Below the pieces are notes generated by a model, which was not told the origin of the DNA, did not search any database, and saw nothing but the letters and a program-made list of their open reading frames with translations. Source: a virus. From it: a DNA stretch of 64,000 bases. Below are positions 1,975 to 51,141 of the stretch, one piece after another (the first letter of the stretch is position 1; each line of letters begins with the position of its first letter). The position numbers and the translations under genes are program-made. Location: positions 1 to 64,000 of the IMG/VR virus record IMGVR_UViG_3300046715_000149, one strand, 5' to 3'.

Positions 1975-2003
1975 ACTGTACTCCCAGTAGAAGGGAGACG
2001 CAA
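1975..2003 (-). promoter_or_regulatory. Family promoter P1 (TTGCGT-17-TACAGT)
   Basis: Leftward promoter. The -35 TTGCGT is at 2003-1998 and the -10 TACAGT at 1980-1975. The spacer ends CTACTGGGAG, giving a near-complete GTACTnnnAGTAC dyad over the -10 box. It drives gene 1717-1947, which here has a normal 5' leader with a ribosome-binding site. Confidence 0.8.
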
Positions 2004-2008
2004 GGGGA

Positions 2009-3001
2009 TCAGCGGAACAGGCGGCGGAGCGAGCGGTGGGCGCGCCAAAAGGCGGACCAGCCGAGGGCGACGCCGAGCACTGGGGCGCCCACCCACGGGA
2101 CCTGCGGCCAGGGCAGTTCCATCATGAGCAGGCCGCGGGCGGACAGGTAGGTGCACACGGCGATCAGGGCCAGCATGGCGAGCGGCTTGCCCAGCTTGCG
2201 GCGCCGCCGGCGTACGGGCCGGCTCGGAGTCGTCGGCCCGGCCGAACGCTCACGGCGGGAACGCGGGATGCGCTCGCCGGGCGGGCGGACCGGGCGCACG
2301 TCGTTGTGGACGGGGCGCAGCCGGTCGATCCAGAACGCCTCGGCGCGGCGGAGGGCGCGGTCATCCTCGCCCGGGTCGCCAGTGCTGCGCACGATCTCCA
2401 GGCAGCGGTAGCCGTCGCGGCCGGGCAGGATGCGCGCCTTCCACGGGTCGCGCGCCACGTCCCCGGCCGAGGTGTGGCCGCTCGATCCGTGCACGCGGCG
2501 GTGGATCGTGGTGGTGGTCATGCCGACGTACGAGTGATCGGTGTCGGACTGGCCGGCCAGGATCAGCTCGTAGACGTAGCCGTAGATCGGACGCGCGGCC
2601 ATCAGAGCAGGTCCGCGAGGTCGGCGAGCGGCCTTGGTGGCCGCGCGCTGGATCCGGCCGATGGCGAGCACCAGCGCTTCGGCGTCCATCGCGGAAGCGT
2701 CGAAGGCATCAGGAAGACTTCCGTCGATGGCAGCGCGCAGGTCGCCGATCGTCCGGACGCGGACCACCCGATCATCCGTCGGGGGGGCCAGGACCATGTT
2801 GCGCCGCGCCATGTCGTTGCGGTGCGCGTAGTTCAGATCGCCGAGGCGGAAGCGATGCTCACCGCCTAGGCCATCCAGCGTGATGACTGCTTGCGTGTTG
2901 GTGGCGCGCCACGTCTTGATCCGATAGATCTGGGCCGGCCGGGTGCCCGAGGCGGGCAGATAGGCGTACCCCTTGGCGATCCAGTTCGGGACGGTGGCCA
3001 T
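2009..3001 (-). CDS. GIY-YIG nuclease with N-terminal extension and C-terminal membrane segments
   Basis: A 330-residue frame. Residues about 1-130 match no family I know. From MAARPIYGYVYEL (ATG at 2602) a GIY-YIG domain follows: GYVYEL, then HSYVGMT, then an invariant-type arginine in IHRRVHG and a late RRAEAFWIDRL. Two hydrophobic segments lie near the C-terminus. GIY-YIG domains cut DNA and are common as phage homing or repair nucleases. The start ATG at 3001 follows the stop of the next gene upstream. Codon bias near 2640-2602 points to a different frame that ends TGATG at the ATG at 2602, so this may originally have been two genes joined by a one-base change. Confidence 0.65.
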   Translation of the reverse strand: MATVPNWIAKGYAYLPASGTRPAQIYRIKTWRATNTQAVITLDGLGGEHRFRLGDLNYAHRNDMARRNMVLAPPTDDRVVRVRTIGDLRAAIDGSLPDAFDASAMDAEALVLAIGRIQRAATKAARRPRGPALMAARPIYGYVYELILAGQSDTDHSYVGMTTTTIHRRVHGSSGHTSAGDVARDPWKARILPGRDGYRCLEIVRSTGDPGEDDRALRRAEAFWIDRLRPVHNDVRPVRPPGERIPRSRRERSAGPTTPSRPVRRRRRKLGKPLAMLALIAVCTYLSARGLLMMELPWPQVPWVGAPVLGVALGWSAFWRAHRSLRRLFR

Positions 3002-3002
3002 C

Positions 3003-3284
3003 TCAGGAGTCCTTCCGGCAGCGGTGGCCCGCGTCGTGGCGGCCAGGGGTACGGCAGTCGGGGTCGGCGCAGCGGGTGCACGCGTCAACGTGGATCGAGG
3101 CGACCTCGATCGTGTCCTCCAGGCTCCACATCTCGGGCGTGTCGTGGACCAGGTTGTCGTGATCGAGACCGCGCCCGGTCGTGTGACCGGGGCAGATGGC
3201 GACGTACGAGGCTCCGTCGTGGTCATCGGGCGTGATCTCGACGCGGGCGGTCTGGTTGTCGTTGGTGACGAACAGGCGGGCCAT
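3003..3284 (-). CDS. Small cysteine-containing protein, unknown function
   Basis: A 93-residue protein. The C-terminal part has a CTRCADPDC cluster plus His and Cys residues that could bind zinc. The rest has no recognised fold. It sits in a tight leftward operon: one base separates it from the gene upstream and its stop lies just ahead of the GIY-YIG gene start. Confidence 0.7.
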   Translation of the reverse strand: MARLFVTNDNQTARVEITPDDHDGASYVAICPGHTTGRGLDHDNLVHDTPEMWSLEDTIEVASIHVDACTRCADPDCRTPGRHDAGHRCRKDS

Positions 3285-3285
3285 C

Positions 3286-3591
3286 TCACACCGTCCGGGT
3301 GATGACTATGCGGGCCGAGTCGCGCGAGCCGTTGCGCAGCACGTTCGGGAGAGCGAACAACGCGGTCCAGAGGGCGAAGGCGTCGGCGTGGTCGGTGGGG
3401 TGGGTGATCGTCGTGACGACGGTCTGACGGTTCGAGTCGGAGTCCCAGGAGATACGGCTCGTGACCGTCGCGCCGACGCCCGGCATGACCCGCTCGACGA
3501 TCCGGCGCGCGTCGCGGGTGGCCTTCTGGACGGTGAGGCCGGTGGCCAGCTTGCGGGCGGTGCTCTTGACGCTGCGGCTCGACTGATACAT
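3286..3591 (-). CDS. Small basic protein of unknown function
   Basis: A 101-residue protein starting MYQSSRSVKSTARK. The ATG at 3591 is chosen over an upstream in-frame start because AAGGGGACGAT directly precedes it. The longer frame would run through the hairpin at 3620-3643. It is the first gene of an operon with the cysteine-containing protein and the GIY-YIG nuclease. Confidence 0.7.
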   Translation of the reverse strand: MYQSSRSVKSTARKLATGLTVQKATRDARRIVERVMPGVGATVTSRISWDSDSNRQTVVTTITHPTDHADAFALWTALFALPNVLRNGSRDSARIVITRTV

Positions 3592-3619
3592 ATCGTCCCC
3601 TTCGTTCTCGGCACGCCCA

Positions 3620-3643
3620 CCGCCCCCTGTTTGCGGGGGGCGG
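3620..3643. terminator. GC-rich hairpin, possible terminator
   Basis: CCGCCCCC pairs with GGGGGCGG around a short loop, between leftward genes 3660-3842 and 3286-3591. No T-run follows on either strand, so termination is uncertain. Confidence 0.45.
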
Positions 3644-3659
3644 GGGTTAGGTGCGCTGG

Positions 3660-3842
3660 TCAGGAGGTGGGCCCGACGATGCGAATGCATCGCTTGCACG
3701 TGATGGGTGCATCTGTGAAGCGAGAACTTCCACCGCGAGCGCCTGTCCCCGTGTCGCAACGGGGAAGGTTGCCGTATGCGGCGTGGACCGTAGTGTTACG
3801 GCCAACGATCAAGTTGCGGGCGTCCGTCGCGTTTGTTGTCAT
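3660..3842 (-). CDS. Small leaderless protein with C-terminal CxxC
   Basis: A 60-residue protein starting MTTNATDARNLIVGR. A longer frame exists, but the ATG at 3842 lies exactly six bases after the TACAGT box of promoter P2, so the mRNA should start at or next to the start codon. The C-terminal part contains CKRC and an earlier cysteine, a possible metal site. No function is recognised. Confidence 0.65.
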   Translation of the reverse strand: MTTNATDARNLIVGRNTTVHAAYGNLPRCDTGTGARGGSSRFTDAPITCKRCIRIVGPTS

Positions 3843-3848
3843 GCCCTT

Positions 3849-3877
3849 ACTGTACTCCCAGTACAAGGGGAGCGCAA
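3849..3877 (-). promoter_or_regulatory. Family promoter P2 (TTGCGC-17-TACAGT), leaderless
   Basis: Leftward promoter. The -35 TTGCGC is at 3877-3872, a 17-base spacer follows, and the -10 TACAGT is at 3854-3849. It carries the full dyad GTACTGGGAGTAC over the -10 box. The ATG of gene 3660-3842 starts six bases downstream. Confidence 0.85.
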
Positions 3878-3909
3878 CCCCTGATGGGCTGCGCCTCCCT
3901 CCGCTTTGT

Positions 3910-4509
3910 TCAGTGGCCGATCGGGGCGGGGCTGACGGGGGCGGACGGGGCAGCAAGCTGGGCTTCCAGGGAATCACGCTCGGCCTGCTTGGCGAGGCGG
4001 GTCATCCTGGCCCGCTCCTTGCGCTCGGCCGCCTTGCGGTCGGCCTCGGCCTTGTTCGCGGCGCGGGTGGCGGCGGCCTTGGTAGCGGCCTGGCTGCGGG
4101 TGGCCTTGACCGTCTCGGCCTGGGTCGCGGCCGGGTTCATCTTCTCGGCCAGCATCTCGGCGGCGACATAGCCGGCAACGACCATCGCGCCGAAAATGCG
4201 GGCACCTGCCGAGTTTCCCGCGCCGATGTTCGCAGCGAGGCTGACCAGCGTGGCGGCGATCTGGAAGCGCAGGCCCATGCGGCGCGTCTGCGGAGAGAAA
4301 CTCTCACTGCGGGCCAGCAGGCCCAGCATCGCGAAACCGTCGATGAAGATCGGAGCGGCGTACGCCTGCCATCCGGTCAGGCCCAGCAGGTTGAACAGGT
4401 GGACGATGTGGGTGTAGCTGATCGTCACGGCGAGGATCGCGATGCCGCGCGTGATGGTCTTGGCGGTCAGGTAGGTCCAGTTTCGGGGAGCGGTGGTCGT
4501 GGTGGCCAT
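3910..4509 (-). CDS. DUF2637/SpdB-like membrane protein
   Basis: A 199-residue protein with about four hydrophobic segments (roughly residues 20-38, 49-66, 80-97, 103-120). An Ala/Lys/Arg-rich, probably coiled-coil tail follows (about 130-185). This layout matches DUF2637 proteins of actinobacterial mobile elements, related to the plasmid spread protein SpdB. The ATG at 4509 is preceded by TTGGAGACACC; an upstream in-frame GTG at 4560 is less likely. Its promoter lies about 70 bases upstream. With the FtsK-like ATPase and the second membrane protein at 4916-5962 it may form a membrane-associated DNA-handling module; that link is inferred from family habit and proximity. Confidence 0.75.
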   Translation of the reverse strand: MATTTTAPRNWTYLTAKTITRGIAILAVTISYTHIVHLFNLLGLTGWQAYAAPIFIDGFAMLGLLARSESFSPQTRRMGLRFQIAATLVSLAANIGAGNSAGARIFGAMVVAGYVAAEMLAEKMNPAATQAETVKATRSQAATKAAATRAANKAEADRKAAERKERARMTRLAKQAERDSLEAQLAAPSAPVSPAPIGH

Positions 4510-4580
4510 CGGTGTCTCCAAGCTTCGGGCGGGAGGGCGATCGACGCTCCTGCGGATCACTCCGTCCCGCTGATAGCTTT

Positions 4581-4610
4581 ACTGTACTCCCAGTACTAAG
4601 GCTAGGGCAA
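4581..4610 (-). promoter_or_regulatory. Family promoter P3 (TTGCCC-18-TACAGT)
   Basis: Leftward promoter. The -35 TTGCCC is at 4610-4605, an 18-base spacer follows, and TACAGT is at 4586-4581. It carries the full dyad GTACTGGGAGTAC and drives the DUF2637-like gene with a leader of about 70 bases. Confidence 0.8.
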
Positions 4611-4630
4611 GAGATTGGCCATGGATGGCA

Positions 4631-4668
4631 CAAACCCCCGCTGAGCTGCGAGACTCGGCGGGGGTTTG
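4631..4668. terminator. Rho-independent terminator
   Basis: CAAACCCCCGC pairs with GCGGGGGTTTG around a 16-base loop that can pair further inside. It follows the stop of the leftward gene 4675-4914 and insulates promoter P3. Confidence 0.75.
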
Positions 4669-4674
4669 CCCGGA

Positions 4675-4914
4675 TTAGGAAGACGCCACCTTGACGTAAG
4701 TCGGAACGAGGTAGACCCGTACGTTGCGCGGTCCGGTGTGGCAGACCTCGACCACGCGCATCTCCCGCTGGACCCGCGCGCCGTCGTTGGCCATCACGGT
4801 TACCTTGGCGAGTTCGCCCTTGCGGGGGACGGCCTCGGCGCTGGGCCACGCCTCAATCCGTGCCCATTCCTGTCCCTGGCTGACGACCGGGCGGTAATAA
4901 AAGGCAATCTCCAC
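4675..4914 (-). CDS. Small protein of unknown function
   Basis: A 79-residue, probably beta-rich protein starting MEIAFYYRPVVSQGQ. No family is recognised. It is the last gene of the leftward unit that includes the membrane protein 4916-5962; only one base separates the two, and a terminator follows its stop. Confidence 0.7.
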   Translation of the reverse strand: MEIAFYYRPVVSQGQEWARIEAWPSAEAVPRKGELAKVTVMANDGARVQREMRVVEVCHTGPRNVRVYLVPTYVKVASS

Positions 4915-4915
4915 G

Positions 4916-5962: not shown

Positions 5963-6017
5963 GGGTACGATCGAAGCTCCTCTAGAGATCACGGTGAACC
6001 CGGATCTCCTCTCGGCG

Positions 6018-6045: not shown

Positions 6046-6052
6046 CGTGTGT

Positions 6053-7372: not shown

Positions 7373-7992
7373 CGCGCCTGCCCCAGCAGCACGTCGCGCG
7401 CCTTGGTGATCAGGCGCATGACCGACTCGGACCCGCCGGGCATGTCCGGGTGGTACTTCTTGGCGGCGAACCGGTACGCGCGGGTGATGCCCTCCTTGCT
7501 GGTCAAGTCGCTGGCGATCAGCTCGATGCCGAGCGCATCGGCAAAGACCAGGCGGGCGGACTCCGGCGTGAGCGTGTCCTCCATCGGCCTGGCCGCGATG
7601 GCCTGCCAACCGCGGTACTGCTCACCGGTGCGGGTGATGCCGTAGCGATCGACGGCGCGCAGCGCGCTGAGTCCGAGGGCGATGGCGCGCACGTTGTCGC
7701 GCCAGTAGTCGAAGGCGTCGGTGGCGTAGGTCAGCGGACCGTGACGCGAGTCGAAGCTGACCTGTACGCCCTGGAAGCCGACGCGGGCGTTCGCCCGGAT
7801 CATGCCGTCGCGGCGCAGGTCAGTCTCGGTGATGTCGATCTGGGTGGCGATCACGGCGCCATCGAGCAGTTCCACCTCGCGCTTGAGCAGGTCGAGCGTG
7901 GAATTCCATCCGGTCTTGAACAGGGCGCGGCGCGGAAAGTCGGTCTTCGGCTTGTTCCATCCGGCCAGCGGGCGGATCTCGAAGCGCACCAT
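7369..7992 (-). CDS. J-domain (DnaJ-like) protein
   Basis: A 207-residue protein. The C-terminal 60 residues carry a J-domain-like segment with the signature HPD in AAKKYHPDMPGG, followed by a helix ending KARDVLLGQAR. J-domains stimulate the ATPase of Hsp70 (DnaK) through HPD. The N-terminal 140 residues are a separate, unrecognised domain. The ATG at 7992 forms TGATG with the upstream gene. Free-standing J-domain proteins are known in actinophages; here it may recruit host DnaK to replication or regulatory complexes, which is inference. Confidence 0.75.
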   Translation of the reverse strand: MVRFEIRPLAGWNKPKTDFPRRALFKTGWNSTLDLLKREVELLDGAVIATQIDITETDLRRDGMIRANARVGFQGVQVSFDSRHGPLTYATDAFDYWRDNVRAIALGLSALRAVDRYGITRTGEQYRGWQAIAARPMEDTLTPESARLVFADALGIELIASDLTSKEGITRAYRFAAKKYHPDMPGGSESVMRLITKARDVLLGQAR

Positions 7993-8186
7993 CACGCCCA
8001 GCCTTCCGGGACCGCATGGTGGTCGGCAGCGTTGTCGTAGACGTGGCGCCAGCCGGTGTACATCGCGAGCCGGCCGTCGATGATGTCGCCCGCGTTCGCA
8101 TAGAACGCCGGGCGGCCGCAGGTCTCCATGCCCTTGGTCAGGTTCGGCTCGCCGATCTTTGCAACGCAGGTCTTCACGGTGCCCAT
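7992..8186 (-). CDS. Small protein of unknown function, first gene of the clamp-like/J-domain operon
   Basis: A 64-residue protein with two cysteines (MGTVKTCVAKIG and METCGRP). GAGAGGGG lies 5 bases before the ATG. Promoter P4 lies just upstream, so this gene starts the operon running through the J-domain, zinc-ribbon and clamp-like genes to 6053. Confidence 0.7.
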   Translation of the reverse strand: MGTVKTCVAKIGEPNLTKGMETCGRPAFYANAGDIIDGRLAMYTGWRHVYDNAADHHAVPEGWA

Positions 8187-8209
8187 CTGGTCCCCTCTCG
8201 TTACGGCTT

Positions 8210-8238
8210 ACTGTACTCCCATGCTTAGCACCAACACC
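8210..8238 (-). promoter_or_regulatory. Family promoter P4 (weak -35, GGGAGTACAGTA core)
   Basis: Leftward promoter with TACAGT at 8215-8210 and GGGAG directly upstream. The -35 region (GGTGTT at 17 bases) is poor. The downstream bases, AAGCCGTAACGAGAGGGG, are the same as those after promoter P6 at 24471, which suggests a duplication. It overlaps the end of gene 8225-8473. Confidence 0.7.
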
Positions 8239-8895: not shown

Positions 8896-8960
8896 TCCGC
8901 CCTGTTCCTCTTCCTTTTTGGGAGTCCTGAAGGTCACAGGGAAACCGACAGTGGACTCGT

Positions 8961-9037
8961 GCGCGCGACCGGAATTGAACCGGTACCTCCCCTGACGTGT
9001 CAGGCCATGGGCGCTTCTGCCGTTGAGCTACGCGCGC
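8961..9037 (-). tRNA. tRNA-like gene with abnormal anticodon arm
   Basis: Read leftwards, the 7-bp acceptor GCGCGCG/CGCGCGC and the T arm ACCGG-TTCAATT-CCGGT are perfect. The D arm starts TAGCTCAACGGCAGA. Between the D and T arms, however, there are 28 bases instead of about 23, and no 5-bp stem with a 7-base loop can be formed. That region instead contains the palindrome CCTGACACGTCAGG, so no anticodon can be assigned. It may be a decayed tRNA, a tRNA-like decoy or an attachment-site remnant. Confidence 0.5.
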
Positions 9038-9196: not shown

Positions 9197-9514
9197 CTAG
9201 TCAAGGGTGATGCCCGCAGCCTTGAGGCCGTTGGCGAACTCCCTCGGAGTGAGTTTGATCCGGGGACCGCGGTCCGGGATCCCGTACGCGGCGGCCCACT
9301 TGCGCAGCGTGCCCTCGGTCACGATCTCGTTGATGACCGGGGTCAGCGCGTGGCTGATCTCGTTCCACGAGTGCGGGCCAGCATCCGGGTTACGGCGGCG
9401 GGCGATGAACTGGGCCAGCGACGTGTCGGACACCTCCGGACTCGTTTCGATGAGCCGGCTCACCAGTCGCATCTCTCGCGTGATGGCCGGCCGCACCCGT
9501 TTGGTGTCCGGCAT
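9197..9514 (-). CDS. Putative DNA-binding regulator
   Basis: A 105-residue basic protein starting MPDTKRVRPAITREMRLV. The C-terminal half (EGTLRKWAAAYGIPDRG) has the look of a helix-turn-helix with a recognition helix. GGGAGGAC precedes the ATG at 9514. It is transcribed away from the rightward early genes across a 108-bp divergent region, the place where phage switch regulators usually sit. A repressor or control role is inferred from position and the HTH-like segment. Confidence 0.6.
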   Translation of the reverse strand: MPDTKRVRPAITREMRLVSRLIETSPEVSDTSLAQFIARRRNPDAGPHSWNEISHALTPVINEIVTEGTLRKWAAAYGIPDRGPRIKLTPREFANGLKAAGITLD

Positions 9515-9622
9515 GCGTCCTCCCTTTCGTCGGCGCTCTTCTACTCCCCCACTGTGCCATGCGGTGTCCCCGTTGTGCAAGGGCTTGCGTGATGGGATAC
9601 TGTACGTACGGACCGAGGGGAG
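9515..9622. promoter_or_regulatory. Divergent promoter region between regulator and early operon
   Basis: Leftwards there is a diverged copy of the family core, GGGAGTAGAAG, upstream of gene 9197-9514. Rightwards a TACTGT box at about 9599-9604 has TTGTGC 19 bases upstream and is followed by GAGGGGAG and the ATG at 9623. TACTGTACGTAC also forms short dyads. Confidence 0.5.
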
Positions 9623-10006
9623 ATGGCGCAGATGACCGACGAGGAGTTTCTGGGGATGCAGTACGAGGATTCGCCCGACCTGGGCGAGCAGCTGGCGGAC
9701 GAGGTCGGGCCGATGATCGTGCCCGCGTACACCGCGCTGCTGACCAGGCGGATCGACGGGACGACCGGGGGCTACACCGAGGGGATGTGGGTGCACGGCT
9801 ACGTGACCATCGCGAGCATCGTCATCACCCACCCGCGCATCCGGCTGGGTTGTGGCACCGAGTTCCCCGGGGTCGTTCGTACGATCCCGGTAGGGCGCAG
9901 GCACCTGCGCACGGCCGAGACGTTCCGCGCGACCTGCGAGGCCGCGGCGTCGGCGTACGAGGGCAACGGGTGGACGCGGCGCCCGCACACGATCCAGGGG
10001 AGCTGA
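9623..10006 (+). CDS. Early protein of unknown function
   Basis: A 127-residue protein starting MAQMTDEEFLGMQ, with GAGGGGAG just before the ATG. It is the first gene of the long rightward replication operon. The sequence suggests a mixed alpha/beta soluble protein; no family is recognised. Confidence 0.7.
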   Translation: MAQMTDEEFLGMQYEDSPDLGEQLADEVGPMIVPAYTALLTRRIDGTTGGYTEGMWVHGYVTIASIVITHPRIRLGCGTEFPGVVRTIPVGRRHLRTAETFRATCEAAASAYEGNGWTRRPHTIQGS

Positions 10007-10008
10007 GG

Positions 10009-10473
10009 ATGGAAGACGAGGATGTCCGGGTCAGCGTGCTGGCCAACGAGCAGGACGTGCACCTGCTGCGCGAGATCGCGCGGTGGCGGCGCAACCACGA
10101 CGTGACCTACTTCCAGTGGCGGCCGGGCGTGGGCTTCGGCGTCTTCACTGAGTGGTACCGGTACGTGAACGGCAATCGGCGCACGGTGAGCTACGAGCCG
10201 GAGAGCGACATCGGCGGCGCCGCGCGACTGCTCGCGACCGTGGACTACTACGGCGGCCGGGAGCTACAGCGACTGCCGGTCCGCACGGTCACCGAGGCGG
10301 TCGATGTGCTCGTGGCGCTCGGCTTCCTGCCGGCCCGGTTCTCGTCGGCGTACCGGAGCGGGTGGGACGCGGCGACAGTGTGGGAGAAGTGCGAGGGGGA
10401 CGAGTCGACGTTCAAGCGGCTGTTCCACGACCCCGACAACATCTCGTTTCCGGCGGTGGAACCGGCATGGTGA
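10009..10473 (+). CDS. Protein of unknown function
   Basis: A 154-residue protein starting MEDEDVRVSVLANEQ. It begins two bases after the previous stop and is followed by an overlapping 36-residue frame. It is rich in aromatic residues (WRRNHDVTYFQWRPG). No family is recognised. Confidence 0.7.
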   Translation: MEDEDVRVSVLANEQDVHLLREIARWRRNHDVTYFQWRPGVGFGVFTEWYRYVNGNRRTVSYEPESDIGGAARLLATVDYYGGRELQRLPVRTVTEAVDVLVALGFLPARFSSAYRSGWDAATVWEKCEGDESTFKRLFHDPDNISFPAVEPAW

Positions 10474-10577
10474 GCCTGCTCAGGTGCCGTCAAGAAGCTG
10501 CGGCGCTGGCCTATGACATCGAGGCCGCGCGCGTCTTCGGCGAGTATGCACGGCTGAACTTTCCGGAGGGGCGATGA
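10467..10577 (+). CDS. Very small protein
   Basis: A 36-residue frame starting MVSLLRCRQEAAALAY. It overlaps the preceding gene by 7 bases and the exonuclease start by ATGA. Coupling on both sides supports it as a real small gene. It is helical with no known function. Confidence 0.55.
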   Translation: MVSLLRCRQEAAALAYDIEAARVFGEYARLNFPEGR

Positions 10578-11611: not shown

Positions 11612-11793
11612 TGCGGAGGCGGGTTCGGCCCGAGGTGGCGGTAGGGCTGCTCGTGCTCTGCCTCGTGGCGTTCGTCGGCGCCGGGCGGGCGGCGGCGCAC
11701 GGGCACATGGTGGCCAGCATCGTCATCGCGGCCGGGGCGTCGGTCAGCGGGCTGATCGTGATGCTGGCCCAGCCGAGCGGGAGGCGGCGCTGA
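11608..11793 (+). CDS. Small membrane protein
   Basis: A 61-residue protein with two hydrophobic segments (about residues 9-27 and 35-53) separated by a short polar loop. It overlaps the exonuclease stop and the start of the DnaQ-like gene by ATGA and TGATG junctions. Function is unknown. Confidence 0.7.
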   Translation: MMRRRVRPEVAVGLLVLCLVAFVGAGRAAAHGHMVASIVIAAGASVSGLIVMLAQPSGRRR

Positions 11794-12671: not shown

Positions 12672-12690
12672 GAGACGAGAGGGGACGAGG

Positions 12691-13859: not shown

Positions 13860-13882
13860 TCTAGCAGGTGGCTTGCTTTATT

Positions 13883-13914
13883 GGACTGTACTCCCGATAA
13901 TGGGAGTACAGTCC
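13883..13914 (+). promoter_or_regulatory. Family promoter P5 expanded to a perfect inverted repeat
   Basis: GGACTGTACTCCC, six bases, then its exact complement GGGAGTACAGTCC. The right half supplies the rightward -10 box TACAGT at 13907-13912. The left half is the same element facing leftwards. TTGGAC lies 20 bases upstream of the -10 box. It controls the helicase-methyltransferase-clamp operon and is the only doubled copy of the motif. Confidence 0.8.
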
Positions 13915-13934
13915 AATCTTATGAAGGGGAGACG

Positions 13935-14174
13935 ATGAAGAAGAATTTTCGGTGCACCGACGATGCCGCGTGGGGGGCGGGACTCGCCAAGGCGGAGGCG
14001 ATGCGGCGCGCGGGCTACGACATCGACATGACCAGCGTGCTCAACACGGCCGTGCGGCAGTTCGCCGACGAGACGCCCGAGGCGAGCGCGGCGCGGTTCG
14101 GACTGGTCAAGGGCGAGAAGCCGGTGGCCATCTACCGCAAGCCGCTGGCCCGGACCGAGCCGGTCGGCCGGTGA
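13935..14174 (+). CDS. Small protein of unknown function, first gene of the helicase operon
   Basis: A 79-residue protein starting MKKNFRCTDDAAWGAGLAKA; a possible ribbon-helix-helix-like arrangement (AGYDIDMTSVLNTAVRQFADE) could bind DNA. AAGGGGAG precedes the ATG. A five-codon frame (ATG at 13921) covers the ribosome-binding site and its stop overlaps this ATG, a possible coupling device. The end forms TGATG with the helicase gene. Confidence 0.65.
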   Translation: MKKNFRCTDDAAWGAGLAKAEAMRRAGYDIDMTSVLNTAVRQFADETPEASAARFGLVKGEKPVAIYRKPLARTEPVGR

Positions 14175-16636
14175 TGGCGTCGTACGCCGACTTCCTGGCC
14201 GGCAAGAGCCAGTACGGCAGCGACGACGGGTTCGCCTACTCGTGGCGGCCCGACTTCCTGTTCGGCTTCCAGGACTCCCTCACCGAGTGGGCCTGCCAGA
14301 TCGGGCGCGGGGCCCTGTTCGCGGACTGCGGGCTCGGCAAGGCTCAGCCGGTTGATGAGCCCGTGCTGACCCCCTCGGGATGGCGGGCGATCGGATCGCT
14401 CGCTGTCGGAGATCAAGTCATCACTGCCGATGGCGAGGCGACCCGGATCATCGGGATGTTCCCGCAGGGTCAGCGGGACACCGTTCGAGTCCGGATGAAC
14501 GACGGGTCTTCGACCGTGTGCGACCGTGACCATTTGTGGACGGTGGCAACCGATCTGGACATTTCCCGTGGCCGACCCTGGCGGACGCTTACCGCTCAGC
14601 AGTTGATCGCGGCCGGACTGGAATTGCCGCCCCGGAACGGGCCCAGATGGAGGGTGCCCGTCGTCGAGGGTGTCCGCCATCCCACCGCAGACCTTCCCAT
14701 CGACCCGTACGTCATGGGTGTGCTTCTCGGAGATGGATCGTTCCGGCCGCCGGGCGGCCCGGAGTTCACTGCGGTGGACGCCCAGATCGCCGCCGAGGTC
14801 AAGACTCGACTCCCTGAGTCGATGCGCCTGTCGATGGACCCCCGTGCTGACCGATCCCAGCAGTACCGCCTTGCGATCGTGGGCGGGGCTGGAAGTGGCG
14901 GACGGTCCAATCCGTTCCTGCAGGCAATCAAGAAATGGGGACTGCACGGAGTCCATTCGAGCGGAAAGTTCATCCCACAGGAGTATCTGTATGGCGACCG
15001 CCATCAGCGACTCGCCCTGCTTCGCGGACTCATGGATACCGACGGATATGTCGCCGCAAGCGGGATGATCCAGTTCGGGTCCTCGTCGCTGCGCCTAGCC
15101 GATGGCGTGACCGAGATCGTGCGAAGCCTGGGCGGAGTCGTCCGGGCCAGCTCGAAGATCCCCACGTACCACCATCTGGGCGAGCGGCGGACCGGGCAGC
15201 GGCACCACGTCCTGACGATCGCCCTACCGAACGGCACCATGCCGTTCCTGCTTGATCGCAAGGTCGCTCGATGCCGTGACCGGTACTACGCCCCTCAGCG
15301 GAAGATCGCGAGTATCGAGCCGGAGGGACGCAGCGAGTGCGTCTGCATTCGGGTCGAGCATCCGTCACAGCTCTATGTCACACGCGACCACATCGTCACG
15401 CACAACACTCCGATGCAGCTCGTGTGGGCCGAGAACGCACGGCGCGCCACCGGCAAGCCCGTGCTCGTGCTGACCCCGCTGGCGGTCGCGTTCCAGACCG
15501 AGACCGAGGCCGCCAAGTTCGGGATCGAGGCCGGCATCTCCCGCGACGGGACGCTGCCTGCGCCGATCACGATCACCAACTACGAGCAGCTCGAGAAGTT
15601 CGACCCGGACAAGTTCGGCGCGGTGGTCTGCGACGAGTCGTCCGCGATCAAGGCATTCGACGGCAAGCGCAAGGCGATCGTGACCGAGTTCCTGCGGACC
15701 GTGCCCTACCGCCTGCTGGCCACCGCCACGGCGGCGCCGAACGACTACGTCGAACTCGGCACCTCCAGCGAAGCGCTCGGCTACCTCGGGCACATGGACA
15801 TGCTCGGCCGCTTCTTCATCAACGCCCAGCGGACCACCACGGCATTCAAGGGCCGGTACATGAACCGTGGCGAGCGGCGGGACGGGTTCATGGATCAGCA
15901 CGGGTGGCGATTCAAGGGTCACGCCGAGGATGCGTTCTGGCGCTGGGTCGTGTCCTGGGCCCGGGCCGTCCGCAAGCCGTCCGACCTCGGCTACTCCGAC
16001 GACGGATACGTGCTACCGGAGCTGCGCGAGATCAAGCACCTGATCGACGCGTCCACTCCTGCCGACGGCCGGCTGTTCGACATCCCGGCGCAGGGGCTGC
16101 ACGAGGAGCGCGAGGAGGCGCGGCGGACCATCCCCGAGCGGTGCGAGAAGGCGGCCGAACTGCTGGTCGACGCCAAGCCTGGTGTGGCATGGTGCCACCT
16201 CAATGACGAGGCCGACCTGCTGGTCAAGCTGATCGACGGCGCCGTCCAGGTGTCCGGGTCCGACTCGCCGCAGGAGAAGGAGGAGAAGCTGCACGCGTTC
16301 TCCGACGGGCAGATCCGGGTGCTGGTCACCAAGCCGAAGCTCGGCGCGTGGGGCCTGAACTGGCAGCACTGCCACCGCATGACCTACTTCCCCAGCCACT
16401 CCTACGAGCAGTGGTATCAGGCCGTCCGGCGCTCATGGCGCTTCGGTCAGACCGAGCCGGTGACCGTGGACATCGTGACCACGCCCGGCGGTGGCCGGAT
16501 CTTCGACAACCTGCACCGCAAGGCGACGGCGGCCGACCAGATGTTCGGCGCGCTGACCAGGCACATGCGTAACGCGCTGGCCGTCAAGCCGATCTCCACC
16601 TACCCGCACCCCGTCGAGATCCCGCCGTGGATCTGA
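14174..16636 (+). CDS. SNF2-type DNA helicase interrupted by an intein
   Basis: An 820-residue precursor whose mature helicase would be 465 residues after removal of a 355-residue intein. Motif I (GLGK then T) is split by the intein after K56. Further motifs are CDESS (motif II), LLATATAAP (motif III), GAWGLNWQHCHR (motif V region) and QAVRRSWRFGQ (motif VI), which is the SNF2/superfamily 2 pattern. It probably remodels or unwinds DNA for replication or modification. The adjacent methyltransferase overlaps its end by ten bases, so the two are likely made together. The start ATG forms TGATG with the preceding gene. Confidence 0.85.
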   Translation: MASYADFLAGKSQYGSDDGFAYSWRPDFLFGFQDSLTEWACQIGRGALFADCGLGKAQPVDEPVLTPSGWRAIGSLAVGDQVITADGEATRIIGMFPQGQRDTVRVRMNDGSSTVCDRDHLWTVATDLDISRGRPWRTLTAQQLIAAGLELPPRNGPRWRVPVVEGVRHPTADLPIDPYVMGVLLGDGSFRPPGGPEFTAVDAQIAAEVKTRLPESMRLSMDPRADRSQQYRLAIVGGAGSGGRSNPFLQAIKKWGLHGVHSSGKFIPQEYLYGDRHQRLALLRGLMDTDGYVAASGMIQFGSSSLRLADGVTEIVRSLGGVVRASSKIPTYHHLGERRTGQRHHVLTIALPNGTMPFLLDRKVARCRDRYYAPQRKIASIEPEGRSECVCIRVEHPSQLYVTRDHIVTHNTPMQLVWAENARRATGKPVLVLTPLAVAFQTETEAAKFGIEAGISRDGTLPAPITITNYEQLEKFDPDKFGAVVCDESSAIKAFDGKRKAIVTEFLRTVPYRLLATATAAPNDYVELGTSSEALGYLGHMDMLGRFFINAQRTTTAFKGRYMNRGERRDGFMDQHGWRFKGHAEDAFWRWVVSWARAVRKPSDLGYSDDGYVLPELREIKHLIDASTPADGRLFDIPAQGLHEEREEARRTIPERCEKAAELLVDAKPGVAWCHLNDEADLLVKLIDGAVQVSGSDSPQEKEEKLHAFSDGQIRVLVTKPKLGAWGLNWQHCHRMTYFPSHSYEQWYQAVRRSWRFGQTEPVTVDIVTTPGGGRIFDNLHRKATAADQMFGALTRHMRNALAVKPISTYPHPVEIPPWI
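14342..15406 (+). other. Class 3-like intein with LAGLIDADG endonuclease
   Basis: This 355-residue insert lies inside the Walker A motif. Its first residue is Ala, not Cys or Ser. It has the Trp-Cys-Thr triplet of class 3 inteins: W66 in DRDHLW, C335 in CVCIRV and T353 in IVTHN. It ends HN and is followed by Thr as the +1 residue. In class 3 inteins the block F cysteine, here C335, starts splicing. Two LAGLIDADG-type motifs are present at about residues 122-133 (YVMGVLLGDGS) and 223-236 (LALLRGLMDTDGYV), so the homing endonuclease looks intact. Confidence 0.85.
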
Positions 16637-17661
16637 GCAAGCCGAGAGGAACCGAGACCGTGGGCAACGTCCTTGACCAGCAGATCACCGACCGATGGGC
16701 CGTCTACAACGGCGACTGCATGGAGGTGATGGCGTCCTACCCGGCCGACTCGCTGCACCTGTCGATCTACTCCCCGCCGTTCGCCGGGCTCTATCACTAC
16801 TCGTCCAGCGAGCGGGACCTGAGCAACAACGTCGACTACGACTCGTTCTTCGCGCACTACGAGCACGTGACCCGGGAGCTGGCGCGGATCACCATGCCGG
16901 GCCGGCGCACGCTGGTGCACTGCATGGACGTGCCGCGGTCGAACAGCGGGCGCAACGACTCGCTGATGGACTTCCCCGGCGACATCATCCGGATGCACGA
17001 ACGGCTCGGCTTCGTCTACACCGGGCGCTACCACGTGTGGAAGGAGCCGCTCGCGGTTCGCAACCGGACCATGACCAAGGGCCTCGCGCACAGGACGATC
17101 GTGGAGGACGCGTCCCAGTGCTCGGTCGCGTCGGCCGACTACCTGCTCGCCTTCCGCAAGCGCGGCGACAACCCGGTGCCGATCGCCAACCCGGTCGGGC
17201 TGATGGAGTACGCCGGATGGCGCACCCCGCCGGCCGAGGTGCTCAGCTACCGCGGGTGGACCGGCAAGCAGACCGAGAACCGCTACTCGCACTGGGTGTG
17301 GAGGCAGTACGCCTCGGCGTTCTGGGACGACATCCGCGGCAACGGCGGTGACCGGGCGCTGGACGAGGGCGCGGTGCTGCCGTTCCGGGCCAGCCGGGAC
17401 GACGACGACGAGAAGCACGTGCACCCGCTCCAGCTCGACGTGATCCACCGTGGCGTGCAGTTGTGGAGCAACCCGGGCGAGACGGTGTTCACGCCGTTCA
17501 TGGGCGTCGGCAGCGAGGTCTACGAGGCGGTGCGGTGCGGACGGCGTGGCGTCGGTGCCGAGCTCAAGACCAGCTACTACAAGCAGGCCGTCCGCAACCT
17601 GGCCACCGTCGACAGGACCGAGCAGGTCGCCGAGACGCTGTTCGACGCGGCGGAGGCGTGA
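16627..17661 (+). CDS. Beta-class N4/N6 DNA methyltransferase
   Basis: A 344-residue protein. Motif IV SPPF is at residues 49-52. The S-adenosylmethionine-binding motif FTPFMGVGSE follows near residue 287, with the later GRRGVGAELKTSYY. The order IV before I marks the beta class of amino-methyltransferases acting on adenine N6 or cytosine N4. The GTG at 16627 overlaps the helicase end; an alternative GTG at 16660 has the better ribosome-binding site AGAGGA. No restriction enzyme is beside it, so self-protection of phage DNA or an epigenetic role with the helicase is likely. Confidence 0.8.
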   Translation: MDLSKPRGTETVGNVLDQQITDRWAVYNGDCMEVMASYPADSLHLSIYSPPFAGLYHYSSSERDLSNNVDYDSFFAHYEHVTRELARITMPGRRTLVHCMDVPRSNSGRNDSLMDFPGDIIRMHERLGFVYTGRYHVWKEPLAVRNRTMTKGLAHRTIVEDASQCSVASADYLLAFRKRGDNPVPIANPVGLMEYAGWRTPPAEVLSYRGWTGKQTENRYSHWVWRQYASAFWDDIRGNGGDRALDEGAVLPFRASRDDDDEKHVHPLQLDVIHRGVQLWSNPGETVFTPFMGVGSEVYEAVRCGRRGVGAELKTSYYKQAVRNLATVDRTEQVAETLFDAAEA

Positions 17662-24441: not shown

Positions 24442-24471
24442 TTGCCCCCCGATCACCGTCGGGAGTACAGT
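24442..24471 (+). promoter_or_regulatory. Family promoter P6 (TTGCCC-18-TACAGT)
   Basis: Rightward promoter with TTGCCC at 24442-24447, an 18-base spacer ending CGGGAG, and TACAGT at 24466-24471. The following AAGCCGTAACGAGAGGGG is shared with P4. It starts the accessory operon from 24497. Confidence 0.8.
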
Positions 24472-24496
24472 AAGCCGTAACGAGAGGGGTTGTGGG

Positions 24497-36217: not shown

Positions 36218-36227
36218 GCCGATCGGG

Positions 36228-36536
36228 TCAGAGGACCTCGTCCGTCCCGTGCTCGACGGAGGCCGGTCGCACGCCGATCTCGCCCCACGGGGCCGGCACG
36301 TCGCGCGCCTCGCGGACGACGTACACGGACATGCCGACGCGCTGACCGGCAGCGTTCTGGCGCCACTGCCCGAAGTTGTCGTAACCGCAGAATCGAACGA
36401 CCTCCAGCACGCCACCCTCGGGCCGGACGAAGCGCTCGCGCACGGTGTACGCCACGTCCAGCGTCCAGCCGGGCTGGGCGTACGCGGTGGTGATGATGTC
36501 CCCGGTCCGGATCATCTCTGCGGCACGCTTCATCAT
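36228..36536 (-). CDS. Leaderless accessory protein
   Basis: A 102-residue protein (MMKRAAEMIRTGDIIT, beta-rich). It is on the strand opposite to the late genes. The ATG at 36536 is exactly six bases from the TACAGT box of P7. A second ATG follows at 36533. A GDIIT-x-A-type start and several aromatic residues suggest a small beta-barrel; the function is unknown. Confidence 0.75.
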   Translation of the reverse strand: MMKRAAEMIRTGDIITTAYAQPGWTLDVAYTVRERFVRPEGGVLEVVRFCGYDNFGQWRQNAAGQRVGMSVYVVREARDVPAPWGEIGVRPASVEHGTDEVL

Positions 36537-36542
36537 GCCTCT

Positions 36543-36571
36543 ACTGTACTCCCAGTACGAGAGCTACGCAA
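36543..36571 (-). promoter_or_regulatory. Family promoter P7 (TTGCGT-17-TACAGT), leaderless
   Basis: Leftward promoter: TTGCGT at 36571-36566, TACAGT at 36548-36543, full dyad GTACTGGGAGTAC. The ATG follows after six bases. Confidence 0.85.
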
Positions 36572-36573
36572 CG

Positions 36574-44162: not shown

Positions 44163-44465
44163 TCAGCTGAGCGCCTCGTTCATCTCAAGAGCGAAGTGGT
44201 GATCGCGAGCAATGCGCGTCCCATCGGTCCGAACGCGGGGCTCGCTGGCACGCCAGTCCTCGCGCTGGCGCTTCGCCCGGATCTCTTCGGTGTAGGTGCA
44301 GTAAGCCTCGGTGATGTCACAGACGATCGACGCCTCATCCGTCGTCCCGTGCCCGCAATGCGAGTGGTACTCGCGCCAAGCGGCGACCTGCTTGCTCTCG
44401 GCCGCGGCCAGCACTCGGCGCATCTGCCCGTCTACCGCGTATCCGATGTCTGCGAAGCTGCCCAT
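44163..44465 (-). CDS. Leaderless accessory protein
   Basis: A 100-residue protein starting MGSFADIGYAVDGQMRR, helical with four cysteines/histidines (HSHCGH, CDITEAYCTY). The ATG lies exactly six bases after the TACAGT of P8. It is a single leftward gene inserted in the late region. The function is unknown. Confidence 0.75.
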   Translation of the reverse strand: MGSFADIGYAVDGQMRRVLAAAESKQVAAWREYHSHCGHGTTDEASIVCDITEAYCTYTEEIRAKRQREDWRASEPRVRTDGTRIARDHHFALEMNEALS

Positions 44466-44471: not shown

Positions 44472-44500
44472 ACTGTACTCCCACTAGACCGGAAATGCAA
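44472..44500 (-). promoter_or_regulatory. Family promoter P8 (TTGCAT-17-TACAGT), leaderless
   Basis: Leftward promoter: TTGCAT at 44500-44495, TACAGT at 44477-44472, preceded by GTGGGAG. The dyad is broken. The ATG follows after six bases. Confidence 0.8.
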
Positions 44501-46745: not shown

Positions 46746-46770
46746 TCTGACCGAGCGAGAGGCGTAGCCG

Positions 46771-47907
46771 ATGGCCCGGATCGGTCGTAGCTTTCCCACC
46801 CATCCGCTGATCAAGCATCAGTCCCTCTTCCTGCCGTCCAACATCACCCTCGCCGACGCCGGGTCCGAGGCCGAGGCGCTCACGGCTACCGCGACAGTCC
46901 CGCTCGCCGATACCGGCGCCGGGACCGAGGCACTGACCGCGACCGTAGCCGCGCCGCTGGCGGACGCGGGCTCGAGCGCCGAGGCACTGGCGGCCACGGT
47001 CGCCGCGCCGCTGGCCGACGCCGGATCGGCCGTTGATTCCCTGACGGTCACGGTCGCGGCTCCGCTCGCCGACGCCGGCGCGGCGTCCGACGCCCTGGAC
47101 AACGGGCTCGGCACGACCAAGTCGCTGACCGACACCGGCTCGGCGGCCGACACGCTCACCGTCACGGCGACGGTCCCGCTCGCCGACACGGCGACCGGCG
47201 CCGACGCGCTGGCGGTAACTGCGGCCGTCCCGCTCGCGGACACCGGGTCGGCCGCCCAGTCGCTGACCGCTACCGCCGCGGCACCGCTGGCGGACGCGGC
47301 GTCTTCCGGCGAGTCGTTGATCGCGAGCGTCACCGCCTCGCTCGCCGACAGCGCGGCGGCGGCCGACTCGCTGACCGCCACCGCGACCGTTCCGCTCGCC
47401 GACACCGGCGCCGCGTCGGACGCGATCGACAACGGTCTCGGCACGAACAAGGCCCTTGCCGACACCGGGGCATCCGCCGAGGCGCTGACCGCTACCGCGG
47501 CCACGCCGCTGGCCGACGCCGGATCCGGCGCCGACGCGCTCGGCGTGAGTGTGGCGCCGGCCCTGGCCGACACCGCCTCGGCGTTGACCACGCTGGCGGT
47601 GACCTCGGTCGCCGCGCCGCTGGCGGACGCGGGCTCCGCTGCCGACACGCTCAGCGTGCAGGTCACGCTGGCACTCACCGACACCGGGCACGCGGTGGAC
47701 ACCGCGGTCGGGCAGGACAATGCGTTCGTCCTGAAGTCCCTGAACGATTCAGGTTCGGCCGCAGACTCGTTCTTCTTCGTGCCTAGCCTGATCACGGGCC
47801 GGCCCGCGGTGACCGGCGATCCGGCGACATCCAAGGCGACCGGCGATCCGGCCGTCGGGACCGTGACCGGCGATCCGGTCTACGCCAGCGCGACGGGAGT
47901 GTACTGA
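46771..47907 (+). CDS. Repeat-rich fibrous protein
   Basis: A 378-residue protein made of about 17 tandem repeats of about 18 residues, consensus PLADxGSxADxLTxTxAx, from about residue 27 to 345. It ends with three TGDP repeats. The DNA repeat is about 54 bases and is clear in the coding strand. Two copies carry a longer DALDNGLGTTK-type variant. Such sequences form elongated rods or surface fibres. It lies in the late region ahead of connector genes. Confidence 0.75.
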   Translation: MARIGRSFPTHPLIKHQSLFLPSNITLADAGSEAEALTATATVPLADTGAGTEALTATVAAPLADAGSSAEALAATVAAPLADAGSAVDSLTVTVAAPLADAGAASDALDNGLGTTKSLTDTGSAADTLTVTATVPLADTATGADALAVTAAVPLADTGSAAQSLTATAAAPLADAASSGESLIASVTASLADSAAAADSLTATATVPLADTGAASDAIDNGLGTNKALADTGASAEALTATAATPLADAGSGADALGVSVAPALADTASALTTLAVTSVAAPLADAGSAADTLSVQVTLALTDTGHAVDTAVGQDNAFVLKSLNDSGSAADSFFFVPSLITGRPAVTGDPATSKATGDPAVGTVTGDPVYASATGVY

Positions 47908-48644: not shown

Positions 48645-48659
48645 GATCTTGGAGGATCG

Positions 48660-48980: not shown

Positions 48981-48988
48981 GAGACGTC

Positions 48989-49495: not shown

Positions 49496-49497
49496 CC

Positions 49498-49932: not shown

Positions 49933-50168
49933 CCACCACGGCGGCCAGCACCCGGCATCTGCTGACCCTCTGGCACGGCCAGAAGCCGTGGCACTGGGCC
50001 GCTCTCAAGTACGGCCACGCCCAGCCGCTCGGCTTCCGCAACCACCTGCGCGCCCGCCGGTTCTGGCAGATCCACCTCACGCCCGTGCACATCGAGCGCG
50101 ACTACAGCAAGTGGAACGTCGGCATCTGCTGGGGCAAACGGACCGTCTACCTCATGGTGCACCGGTGA
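49929..50168 (+). CDS. Small protein of unknown function
   Basis: A 79-residue basic, Trp-rich protein from a GTG (RHLLTLWHGQKPWHWAAL). It is coupled by GTGA overlaps on both sides within the connector genes. No family is recognised. Confidence 0.6.
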   Translation: MTTTAASTRHLLTLWHGQKPWHWAALKYGHAQPLGFRNHLRARRFWQIHLTPVHIERDYSKWNVGICWGKRTVYLMVHR

Positions 50169-50359
50169 CCGCCCTCGTCAAGCCATACGCGTATCTGCCC
50201 GACTATGCCGATGTCGACTACGTGGACGGCAAGCTCTCCGTTGCGCAGGGGATCATCGCAAGGACGACTGACCCGGGTCTGAAGCGACGGTGGATGGAGA
50301 CGGTGGACCTACTGCTTGAGCAGCGGTCGGCGCTGGCTTCGCTGGACGGTCAGCAGTGA
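50165..50359 (+). CDS. Small protein of unknown function
   Basis: A 64-residue acidic protein from a GTG (MTALVKPYAYLPDYADVDY), helical at the C-terminus. It is coupled to both neighbours. No family is recognised. Confidence 0.6.
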   Translation: MTALVKPYAYLPDYADVDYVDGKLSVAQGIIARTTDPGLKRRWMETVDLLLEQRSALASLDGQQ

Positions 50360-50784
50360 CCGCGCGGACCTACGCCGACGCAGTGGGCGTGATGCGCGAA
50401 TGGATCAACTCGCGCACGACCACGCTGGTCGGCGTCGGGCATCCGCTTCAGCAGGGCGCGCACCTGAAGAAGATCTCGGGCGGCGCACCTGCGGCGTACG
50501 CGTACCTGGAAGAGGGCATCTCGTTCCGCAGCGCGGACTCGCCGGAGAGCCCGGACATGCTCGCGGCCATGTCGGCGCAGATCTACGCGGACACCCGCGA
50601 GGCGGCCGGACTGGCCGCGACCGCGCTGGCCGAGGAGCTGAGCACGCAGCTCGAAGGTCGCGAGACCGCGGTGACGGGCGCGGTCATCTACGCGGTCGAC
50701 GACATCCAGGGGCCGGCCTACGTGCCCGACGGCGACCGGCCGCGGCTGCTGCTCAACTGGACCGTTCGGATCCGGCCGACGTGA
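50356..50784 (+). CDS. Probable tail terminator protein
   Basis: A 142-residue protein from a GTG, preceding the tail tube gene. It starts MTARTYADAVGVMREWINS and ends in strand-rich RLLLNWTVRIRPT, fitting minor tail/tail terminator proteins. The assignment rests mainly on gene order. Confidence 0.6.
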   Translation: MTARTYADAVGVMREWINSRTTTLVGVGHPLQQGAHLKKISGGAPAAYAYLEEGISFRSADSPESPDMLAAMSAQIYADTREAAGLAATALAEELSTQLEGRETAVTGAVIYAVDDIQGPAYVPDGDRPRLLLNWTVRIRPT

Positions 50785-50788
50785 GCCG

Positions 50789-51106
50789 CTAGACCAGCCG
50801 ACCGGTCTTGCCGATTAGGTCGTCAGCGATGCCGGTCAGCACCTCGGCCTCGGCCTGCAACTCGCCGACGAGCCGCAGTAGGGCCTGTCGCTGGTCGATG
50901 ATCCGGGTGCAGGCGCTCCATGCGGTGCCGTGGCCATAGTCGCCGTCGCCGCCGGGCGAGTATCCGGCCGCGATCAGTTCGTCGTAGACGCACCGCTTCC
51001 CACGTCGGATCGGCGTGTCGAGGATTTTGCCGATCTCCGCGCGCACCTCGGCGGCGGCATCCTCCAGTCGGCGGCTGAGCTGATGCAGGTGCTCCAGGTT
51101 CTCCAT
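50789..51106 (-). CDS. Leaderless accessory protein
   Basis: A 105-residue, mostly helical protein starting MENLEHLHQLSRRLED; long coiled-coil-like helices with a short GYSPGGDGDYGHG loop. The ATG lies exactly six bases after TACAGT of P9. A longer frame to 51433 would cross the tRNA-like element and is rejected. The function is unknown. Confidence 0.75.
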   Translation of the reverse strand: MENLEHLHQLSRRLEDAAAEVRAEIGKILDTPIRRGKRCVYDELIAAGYSPGGDGDYGHGTAWSACTRIIDQRQALLRLVGELQAEAEVLTGIADDLIGKTGRLV

Positions 51107-51112
51107 GGAATT

Positions 51113-51141
51113 ACTGTACTCCCAGCGGACCAACATCGCGA
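51113..51141 (-). promoter_or_regulatory. Family promoter P9, leaderless, weak -35
   Basis: TACAGT at 51118-51113 with GCTGGGAG upstream; the hexamer 17 bases upstream, TCGCGA, is poor. The ATG at 51106 follows after six bases. Confidence 0.75.

What the first reader, a model, noticed from the sequence alone, without database searches (positions are those of the whole stretch)
1975..51141. A dispersed family of near-identical promoters, four of them exactly six bases from the start codon
At least nine copies of GGGAGTACAGTa are found (P1-P9: -10 boxes at about 1975, 3849, 4581, 8210, 13907, 24466, 36543, 44472, 51113), seven before leftward genes and two before rightward ones. Four (P1, P2, P7, P8) have TTGCGT, TTGCGC or TTGCAT exactly 17 bases upstream of TACAGT, and P3 and P6 have TTGCCC at 18. 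In P2, P7, P8 and P9 the ATG follows the -10 box after exactly six bases and no ribosome-binding site exists, so the mRNA should be leaderless. Most of the genes are accessory, not structural. A single conserved, scattered promoter with leaderless output suggests one phage regulon, perhaps the genes expressed in the lysogen.
Basis: partly seen in the sequence, partly recalled or inferred. Interest (0 to 1): 0.85.

Follow-up and report, generated by a model that had tools for sequence, protein, structure and literature searches.

The report
Phage-wide promoter family with shared operator
A soil-type actinobacterial phage (and its whole genus) puts the same short control sequence on the promoters of many small, mostly one-off accessory genes and, in two copies, on the promoter of a small Arc-like DNA-binding protein that probably switches all of them, and itself, off.

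Summary
GGGAGTACAGT occurs 10 times in the 66.5-kb phage (0.005 expected), all intergenic, none with one mismatch. I fetched ten relatives (TerL 58-98% identical). Eight records hold the same family. Over 53 dispersed sites in nine phages, TTG lies 17/18 bases upstream of the -10 in 44 (0.76 expected), and ATG follows after exactly six bases in 20 (0.57 expected). Most of the rest have a Shine-Dalgarno leader fitting the same start point. These are sigma70-type promoters with leaderless or short-leader mRNAs.

It is one arm of a perfect 16-bp inverted pair around a separate promoter (TTGCTT-17-GATAAT) that drives a 79-aa Arc-like (ribbon-helix-helix) protein. In all seven near-complete genomes two copies flank the -10 of that gene. 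In phage G010 the dyad is GTGGGTACAGT and all six dispersed promoters carry the same changed base. So the 11-mer is best read as the operator of an autoregulated phage repressor, lying over the -10 of dispersed accessory-gene promoters.

The lysogen idea is unsupported: no integrase, resolvase or ParA was found. An early burst followed by shut-off fits better. Binding and timing are inferred, not shown.

The parts
1975..1985 (-). P1: motif GGGAGTACAGT with TACAGT as -10; -35 TTGCGT at 1998-2003 (17 bp); leadered, ATG at 1947 with Shine-Dalgarno
3849..3859 (-). P2: motif and -10; -35 TTGCGC 17 bp; ATG 6 bases downstream (leaderless)
3660..3842 (-). small ORF (60 aa) read from P2, leaderless; no homolog in relatives
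4581..4591 (-). P3: motif and -10; -35 TTGCCC 18 bp; 71-nt gap to ATG of 3910-4509 (weak DUF2637)
8210..8220 (-). P4: motif and -10 without recognisable -35; gene 7992-8186; promoter and gene conserved in G001, G005, G010
13880..13917 (.). P5 operator: perfect 16-bp inverted pair ATTGGACTGTACTCCC-GATAAT-GGGAGTACAGTCCAAT
   Evidence: folds as hairpin in RNA
13873..13901 (+). P5 promoter: TTGCTT-17-GATAAT (-10 at 13896-13901) lying inside the operator
13935..14174 (+). 79-aa Arc-like (ribbon-helix-helix) protein, candidate autoregulated repressor
14174..16636 (+). helicase with LAGLIDADG intein, same operon as candidate repressor
16627..17661 (+). DNA methylase (N6_N4_Mtase), same operon
24461..24471 (+). 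P6: motif and -10; -35 TTGCCC 18 bp; leadered gene 24497-24787; in G001 the same promoter reads the next gene
36543..36553 (-). P7: motif and -10; -35 TTGCGT 17 bp; leaderless
36228..36536 (-). 102-aa accessory gene of P7; region 36225-36888 absent from G001
44472..44482 (-). P8: motif and -10; -35 TTGCAT 17 bp; leaderless
44163..44465 (-). 100-aa accessory gene of P8; cassette absent from G001
51113..51123 (-). P9: motif and -10, no clear -35; leaderless
50789..51106 (-). 105-aa accessory gene of P9; cassette about 50787-51152 absent from G001

Best explanation
The 11-mer is the recognition site (operator) of a phage-encoded DNA-binding protein and lies over the -10 box of dispersed host-sigma70-type promoters. 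The most likely protein is the 79-aa Arc-like ribbon-helix-helix product of 13935-14174, whose own promoter (P5) carries two copies flanking its -10. On infection, host RNA polymerase would fire P5 and all dispersed promoters at once. This would give an early burst of small accessory proteins, many from leaderless mRNAs. As the Arc-like protein accumulates it would shut the dispersed promoters and its own. Because promoter plus operator travel with each small gene as a cassette, newly acquired genes join the regulon at once. Shown from sequence: promoter architecture, spacing, conservation, P5 geometry, concerted change of site, cassette presence/absence. Inferred: that the Arc-like protein binds the site, that binding represses, and the early-then-off timing.
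For: 1) Promoters: 44 of 53 dispersed sites in nine phages have TTG 17/18 bases from TACAGT (expected 0.76); 20 have ATG at exactly six (expected 0.57). Most of the other genes start 23-44 bases downstream behind a Shine-Dalgarno, consistent with one start point. 2) More than a promoter: T-GGGRG-TACAGT-A is near-invariant while flanks differ. 3) At the Arc-like gene the motif does not serve as -10. In 7 of 7 genomes two copies flank another -10: inverted with 6-bp gap around GATAAT in G000, G001, G004, G005; inverted with longer gap in G010 and (variant half-site) G008; direct tandem in G006. 4) Concerted change: in G010 both arms and all six dispersed sites read GTGGGTACAGT, and GGGNGTACAGT is absent. 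In G000 all are GGGAG; in G004 and G005 all are GGGGG. 5) Regulator: helix layout fits strand-helix-helix; N-x-R-x-P aligns with Arc/Mnt in register; phmmer alignment to the antitoxin MazE6; P22 Arc is the top but non-significant Foldseek hit; 46% identity over half its length to mycobacteriophage Ramsey gp70, annotated 'Arc-like repressor'. 6) Cassettes: P7, P8, P9 gene-plus-promoter blocks are absent from G001 with near-exact junctions; 17 of 20 leaderless genes have no homolog in the other near-complete genomes.
Against: No binding or expression data exist. The RHH assignment is weak by every single test (Pfam, PHROGs and NCBIfam silent; Pfam Arc model no hit even at E 10; Foldseek not significant). 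The concert is imperfect: G001 has GGGGG in the P5 pair but GGGAG in dispersed sites; the G008 pair reads GGGGGGACAC against dispersed GGGGGTACAST. Co-occurrence of site and protein is not unique: the HTH-like gene 9197-9514 and other non-structural genes have the same distribution. A repressor that first has to be made cannot be told from an activator or a lysogeny repressor by sequence alone.
Confidence: 0.6

Rival explanations
1. The 11-mer is only a strong extended promoter element read by the host (or an alternative) sigma factor; it is conserved because it is a good promoter, and the P5 pair is incidental.
For: TACAGT fits a TANNNT -10, the -35 TTGCG at 17 is conserved, T and A flank the core. 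Most TTG-17/18-TANNNT promoters between genes of this phage carry the motif.
Against: The P5 copies are not in -10 position and the left arm faces no gene; two copies flank the -10 of the same gene in 7 of 7 genomes; a base change appears in both arms and all dispersed sites of G010. A host-read element should not change in concert in one phage.
Confidence: 0.17
2. The site is bound by another phage regulator, such as the conserved HTH-like product of 9197-9514 or an immunity repressor; the Arc-like gene is just one of its targets.
For: 9197-9514 is present in all seven genomes; dispersed repressor sites are known for L5-type immunity repressors (PMC9283540).
Against: Only the Arc-like promoter carries the paired arrangement. 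No exact motif lies in the 9515-9622 promoter region of the HTH-like gene. No integrase, resolvase or ParA.
Confidence: 0.2
3. The P5 inverted pair is an intrinsic terminator of the upstream operon (9623-13859), and its similarity to the dispersed promoters is secondary.
For: It folds with -29 kcal/mol, z -6.4; in G005 the stem is followed by a run of T.
Against: In G006 the two copies are direct repeats and cannot form this hairpin; the stem sequence equals the dispersed promoter motif and changes with it in G010; a spaced -35 and -10 lie inside it in every genome. It may do both jobs.
Confidence: 0.08
4. One reading: the regulon is expressed in the lysogen (prophage-expressed genes).
For: Small leftward single genes with own promoters inside a rightward structural operon are typical of morons expressed from prophages (own knowledge). 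A TraB/FtsK-like gene hints at a plasmid-like state.
Against: No integration or ParA module found in seven genomes; no prophage relative found in 84,980 species genomes (one scan with two short patterns).
Confidence: 0.1

Closest known systems
ESAS promoters of cluster K mycobacteriophages (Adephagia, TM4; PMC3203893, PMC11373665)
   Same: Dispersed intergenic copies (7 in Adephagia) of SigA-like promoters spaced 17-18 bp that contain a conserved inverted-repeat operator; phage-subgroup-specific changes of the repeat; regulator suspected to be a transcriptional repressor.
   Different: There a 15-17 bp imperfect inverted repeat accompanies each promoter, linked to the SAS repeat at the start codon, and the regulator is unknown. 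Here each dispersed promoter has one asymmetric 11-mer over the -10, a large share is leaderless, and a paired copy sits on the gene of a candidate regulator. The published SAS sequence is different.
Early/anti-defence gene promoters of archaeal viruses with Aca8 (PMC11065993) and Aca autorepressors of acr operons (PMC9410906)
   Same: Same promoter plus regulatory sequence before many small accessory genes and before a small DNA-binding protein thought to shut them off.
   Different: Archaeal TATA/BRE promoters and wHTH Aca8; here a bacterial sigma70 promoter and an RHH-like protein; anti-defence function of the genes is untested.
Stoperators of cluster A mycobacteriophages (L5 gp71 type; PMC9283540, PMC6550527)
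   Same: Dispersed, asymmetric, oriented short operator with one regulator.
   Different: Stoperators mostly stop elongation and the regulator is the immunity repressor; here every dispersed site is a promoter with an adjacent start codon.
Arc and Mnt repressors of phage P22 (ribbon-helix-helix)
   Same: N-x-R-x-P at the N-terminal strand, size, helix layout, autoregulated early promoter (the last from own knowledge of Arc).
   Different: Arc acts at one locus (own knowledge); no significant family match; here a genome-wide regulon is proposed.

Membership tests
ESAS promoters (cluster K) | SigA-like -35/-10 spaced 17-18 bp, intergenic, several copies | tested here: met
   44 of 53 sites with TTG at 17/18; all ten copies of the window intergenic
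ESAS promoters (cluster K) | Inverted repeat of 15-17 bp at each promoter | tested here: not met
   single asymmetric 11-mer at dispersed sites; inverted pair only at P5. G006/G008 have a different dyad GCAAS-N3-STTGC on the -35
ESAS promoters (cluster K) | SAS GGGATAGGAGCCC before the start codon | tested here: not met
   sequences between the motif and the start codons contain no such repeat
Stoperators (L5 gp71) | Asymmetric site oriented with transcription | tested here: met
   dispersed sites point at a start codon downstream
Stoperators (L5 gp71) | Sites act away from promoters, inside transcribed regions | tested here: not met
   sites overlap -10 boxes
Ribbon-helix-helix (Arc/MetJ) transcription factor | N-terminal strand followed by two helices | tested here: inconclusive
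   AF2 helices 16-29 and 33-46 after an extended N-terminal stretch, mean pLDDT 82; the strand only forms in a dimer, which was not modelled
Ribbon-helix-helix (Arc/MetJ) transcription factor | Significant sequence or fold match to a known RHH family | tested here: inconclusive
   top Foldseek hit Arc, E 3.5; hhalign E 0.014; Pfam silent; tblastn to annotated Arc-like repressor E 0.01
Aca-type autorepressor regulon | Small DNA-binding protein whose own promoter shares the operator of the accessory genes | tested here: met
   (DNA-binding nature itself inferred)
Aca-type autorepressor regulon | Repression shown, linked genes are anti-CRISPR or anti-defence | not testable with these tools
   no expression or phenotype data; products have no family match
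Leaderless mRNA | Transcription start at the A of ATG | not testable with these tools
   predicted from -10 to ATG spacing of six in 20 of 53; needs 5' end mapping

The most novel reading that the evidence does not exclude
A genus of actinobacterial phages runs a genome-wide plug-in regulon: one 11-bp half-site laid over the -10 of leaderless or short-leader promoters is read by an autoregulated Arc-like repressor, site and reader change together between phages, and new small genes (probably counter-defence or take-over genes) enter the regulon as promoter-gene cassettes. The motif would then be a signpost for finding early accessory genes in actinophages.
Probability: 0.4. Interest if true: 0.75.

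Novelty: new variant of a known kind. Interest (0 to 1): 0.62.

Why it matters
Dispersed repeated promoters have been seen in other actinophages (cluster K ESAS), but their regulator is unknown. Here the paired site on one conserved gene names a candidate regulator, and G010 provides a natural specificity variant to test it with. If right, the motif marks a set of early, fast-changing small genes, which is where anti-defence and host take-over proteins would be sought. It also shows phages using leaderless translation as a compact cassette format in high-GC hosts.

Tried and rejected
- Megablast of 7 kb against 50,697 phages: no match; portal and terminase only about 35-40%.
- Pattern GGGAGTACAGTA-N5-ATG in all viral contigs: 21 hits, apparently chance hits in unrelated contigs.
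- Exact P5 pair with GGGAG: none, because relatives use GGGGG.
- Helicase relatives (80 loci): no recognisable Arc-like gene or shared dyad upstream by a crude pattern search; the system appears limited to this genus.
- Five more distant relatives (TerL ~50%): no motif, no Arc-like gene, no comparable repeated promoter 11-mer.
- Genome contigs scan for prophages: none confirmed.
- Pfam, PHROGs, NCBIfam, PDB for the Arc-like protein: no significant family.
- Reading both P5 arms as -10 boxes: rejected, the left arm faces no gene and the right one has no -35 at 17.
- Papers: no report of this motif found in the held library.
Full report
The window is 64 kb of a 66,492-bp virus record (G000) with a 127-bp terminal direct repeat, so probably a complete, circularly assembled phage genome; G+C is about 69%. 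It has rightward structural genes (portal, capsid), a rightward replication/recombination module (YqaJ exonuclease, ERF, helicase, methylase, sliding clamp) and a leftward arm of mostly unknown genes with a TraB/FtsK-like protein. No close relative is in the phage collection.

Check of the observation. GGGAGTACAGT occurs ten times exactly, never with one mismatch, and all copies are intergenic. The second-order Markov expectation is 0.005. The tenth copy, 13885-13895 on the minus strand, was missed. With 13902-13912 it forms the perfect inverted pair ATTGGACTGTACTCCC-GATAAT-GGGAGTACAGTCCAAT. A promoter TTGCTT-17-GATAAT lies inside this pair, so 'P5' is a pair of sites around another -10.

Relatives. 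Terminase searches gave ten relatives (G001-G010, TerL identity 58-98%). Copies of GGGNGTACAGT per record: G004 14, G005 8, G006 7, G008 3, G003 1, with no reversed-motif controls; G001 has 7 and G002 2. G010 had none until its Arc-like gene was inspected: its dyad reads ACTGTACCCAC...GTGGGTACAGT, and GTGGGTACAGT then proved to occur at six further promoters there. Five still more distant phages (G011-G015, TerL about 50%) have neither motif nor Arc-like gene.

Promoter anatomy. Over 53 dispersed sites (this set includes GTGGGTACAGT in G010 and GGGGGTACACT variants in G006 and G008), TTG stands 17 bases before TACAGT in 33 and 18 in 11. ATG follows after exactly six bases in 20. In 32 the gene starts further down, nearly always 23-44 bases, behind a purine-rich Shine-Dalgarno. 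Chance would give 0.76 and 0.57. Sites in related phages are not independent events, but the window alone gives 6 of 8 and 4 of 8. Both classes fit one start point seven bases after TACAGT. [quoted passage not shown] the host itself is not known.

Cassettes. P7, P8 and P9 with their genes are absent from G001 with near-exact junctions. P6 is kept in G001 although the gene behind it is lost, so the promoter reads the next gene. 17 of 20 leaderless genes have no homolog in the other near-complete genomes; some leadered ones (8220 type) are conserved with their promoter. The products of the window's regulon match no family.

Operator evidence. The promoter of the gene at 13935 carries two copies flanking its -10 in all seven near-complete genomes: inverted with a 6-bp gap (G000, G001, G004, G005), inverted with a longer gap (G010, and G008 with a variant half-site), or direct tandem (G006). 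Orientation and gap vary; what stays is one copy in the spacer and one immediately after the -10. A terminator hairpin therefore cannot be the whole story, although some copies would fold well and are followed by T runs. The half-site matches the dispersed sites of the same phage in G000, G004, G005 and G010, and nearly in G006; it departs in G001 (one base) and G008.

The candidate regulator is 64-83 aa long with N-x-R-x-P or a close variant at its N-terminus and two helices after it. The profile aligns to Arc/Mnt with N, R and P in register (E 0.014). Arc is the first Foldseek hit, but not significant. A mycobacteriophage 'Arc-like repressor' near a methylase gene is 46% identical over half its length. 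The sum is suggestive, not proof. That it represses, and that expression is early then off, is inference from operator position over the -10 and from autoregulated phage repressors in general.

Comparison. The nearest system is the ESAS of cluster K mycobacteriophages, recently reinterpreted as SigA-like promoters with an inverted repeat and an unknown regulator (PMC11373665). The nearest functional analogue is the shared early promoter of archaeal viruses with Aca8 (PMC11065993). This case works like both but is a member of neither by the tests made.

Lysogeny. No tyrosine integrase, serine recombinase or ParA-type ATPase is found in any of seven genomes, with controls ringing in known genomes. 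The lysogen reading is unsupported, not excluded.

Noticed in passing
14174-16636: The helicase carries a LAGLIDADG intein inserted in the Walker A motif (GLGK/T); the homologs in G004, G005 and G010 lack it.
   Followed up: partly
L074-L077 (G006), L078-L081 (G008): A second dyad GCAAS-N3-STTGC covers the -35 of most dispersed promoters in G006 and G008 (9 of 11 occurrences just upstream of the motif) and is absent from G000-G005; a second regulator is likely.
   Followed up: partly
window 9515-9622: The divergent promoter region of the HTH-like gene 9197-9514 has TTGTGC-17-GATACT and GCAAGGGCTTGC but not the exact 11-mer.
   Followed up: no
8192-8220 and 24461-24489: P4 and P6 share about 29 identical bases (GGGAGTACAGTAAGCCGTAACGAGAGGGG), suggesting promoter-leader duplication within the genome.
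   Followed up: no
3610-4689: Compared with G001, about 0.9 kb including P2 and P3 is collapsed to one promoter, as if by recombination between promoter copies.
   Followed up: no
3-1208 and the record beyond 64000: A TraB/FtsK-like gene (about 27% identical to Streptomyces plasmid TraB) probably crosses the record ends; with a weak DUF2637 match at 3910-4509 it hints at a plasmid-related arm, without ParA.
   Followed up: partly
58506-59333: Leftward glycerophosphodiester phosphodiesterase gene (signal-peptide-like N-terminus) inside the rightward region, without the motif; moron-like.
   Followed up: no
46771-47907: Internal degenerate repeats in a gene of the structural region, differing in arrangement from G001.
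   Followed up: no
8959-9037 and 51303-51376: tRNA-Val and tRNA-Arg genes on the minus strand.
   Followed up: no
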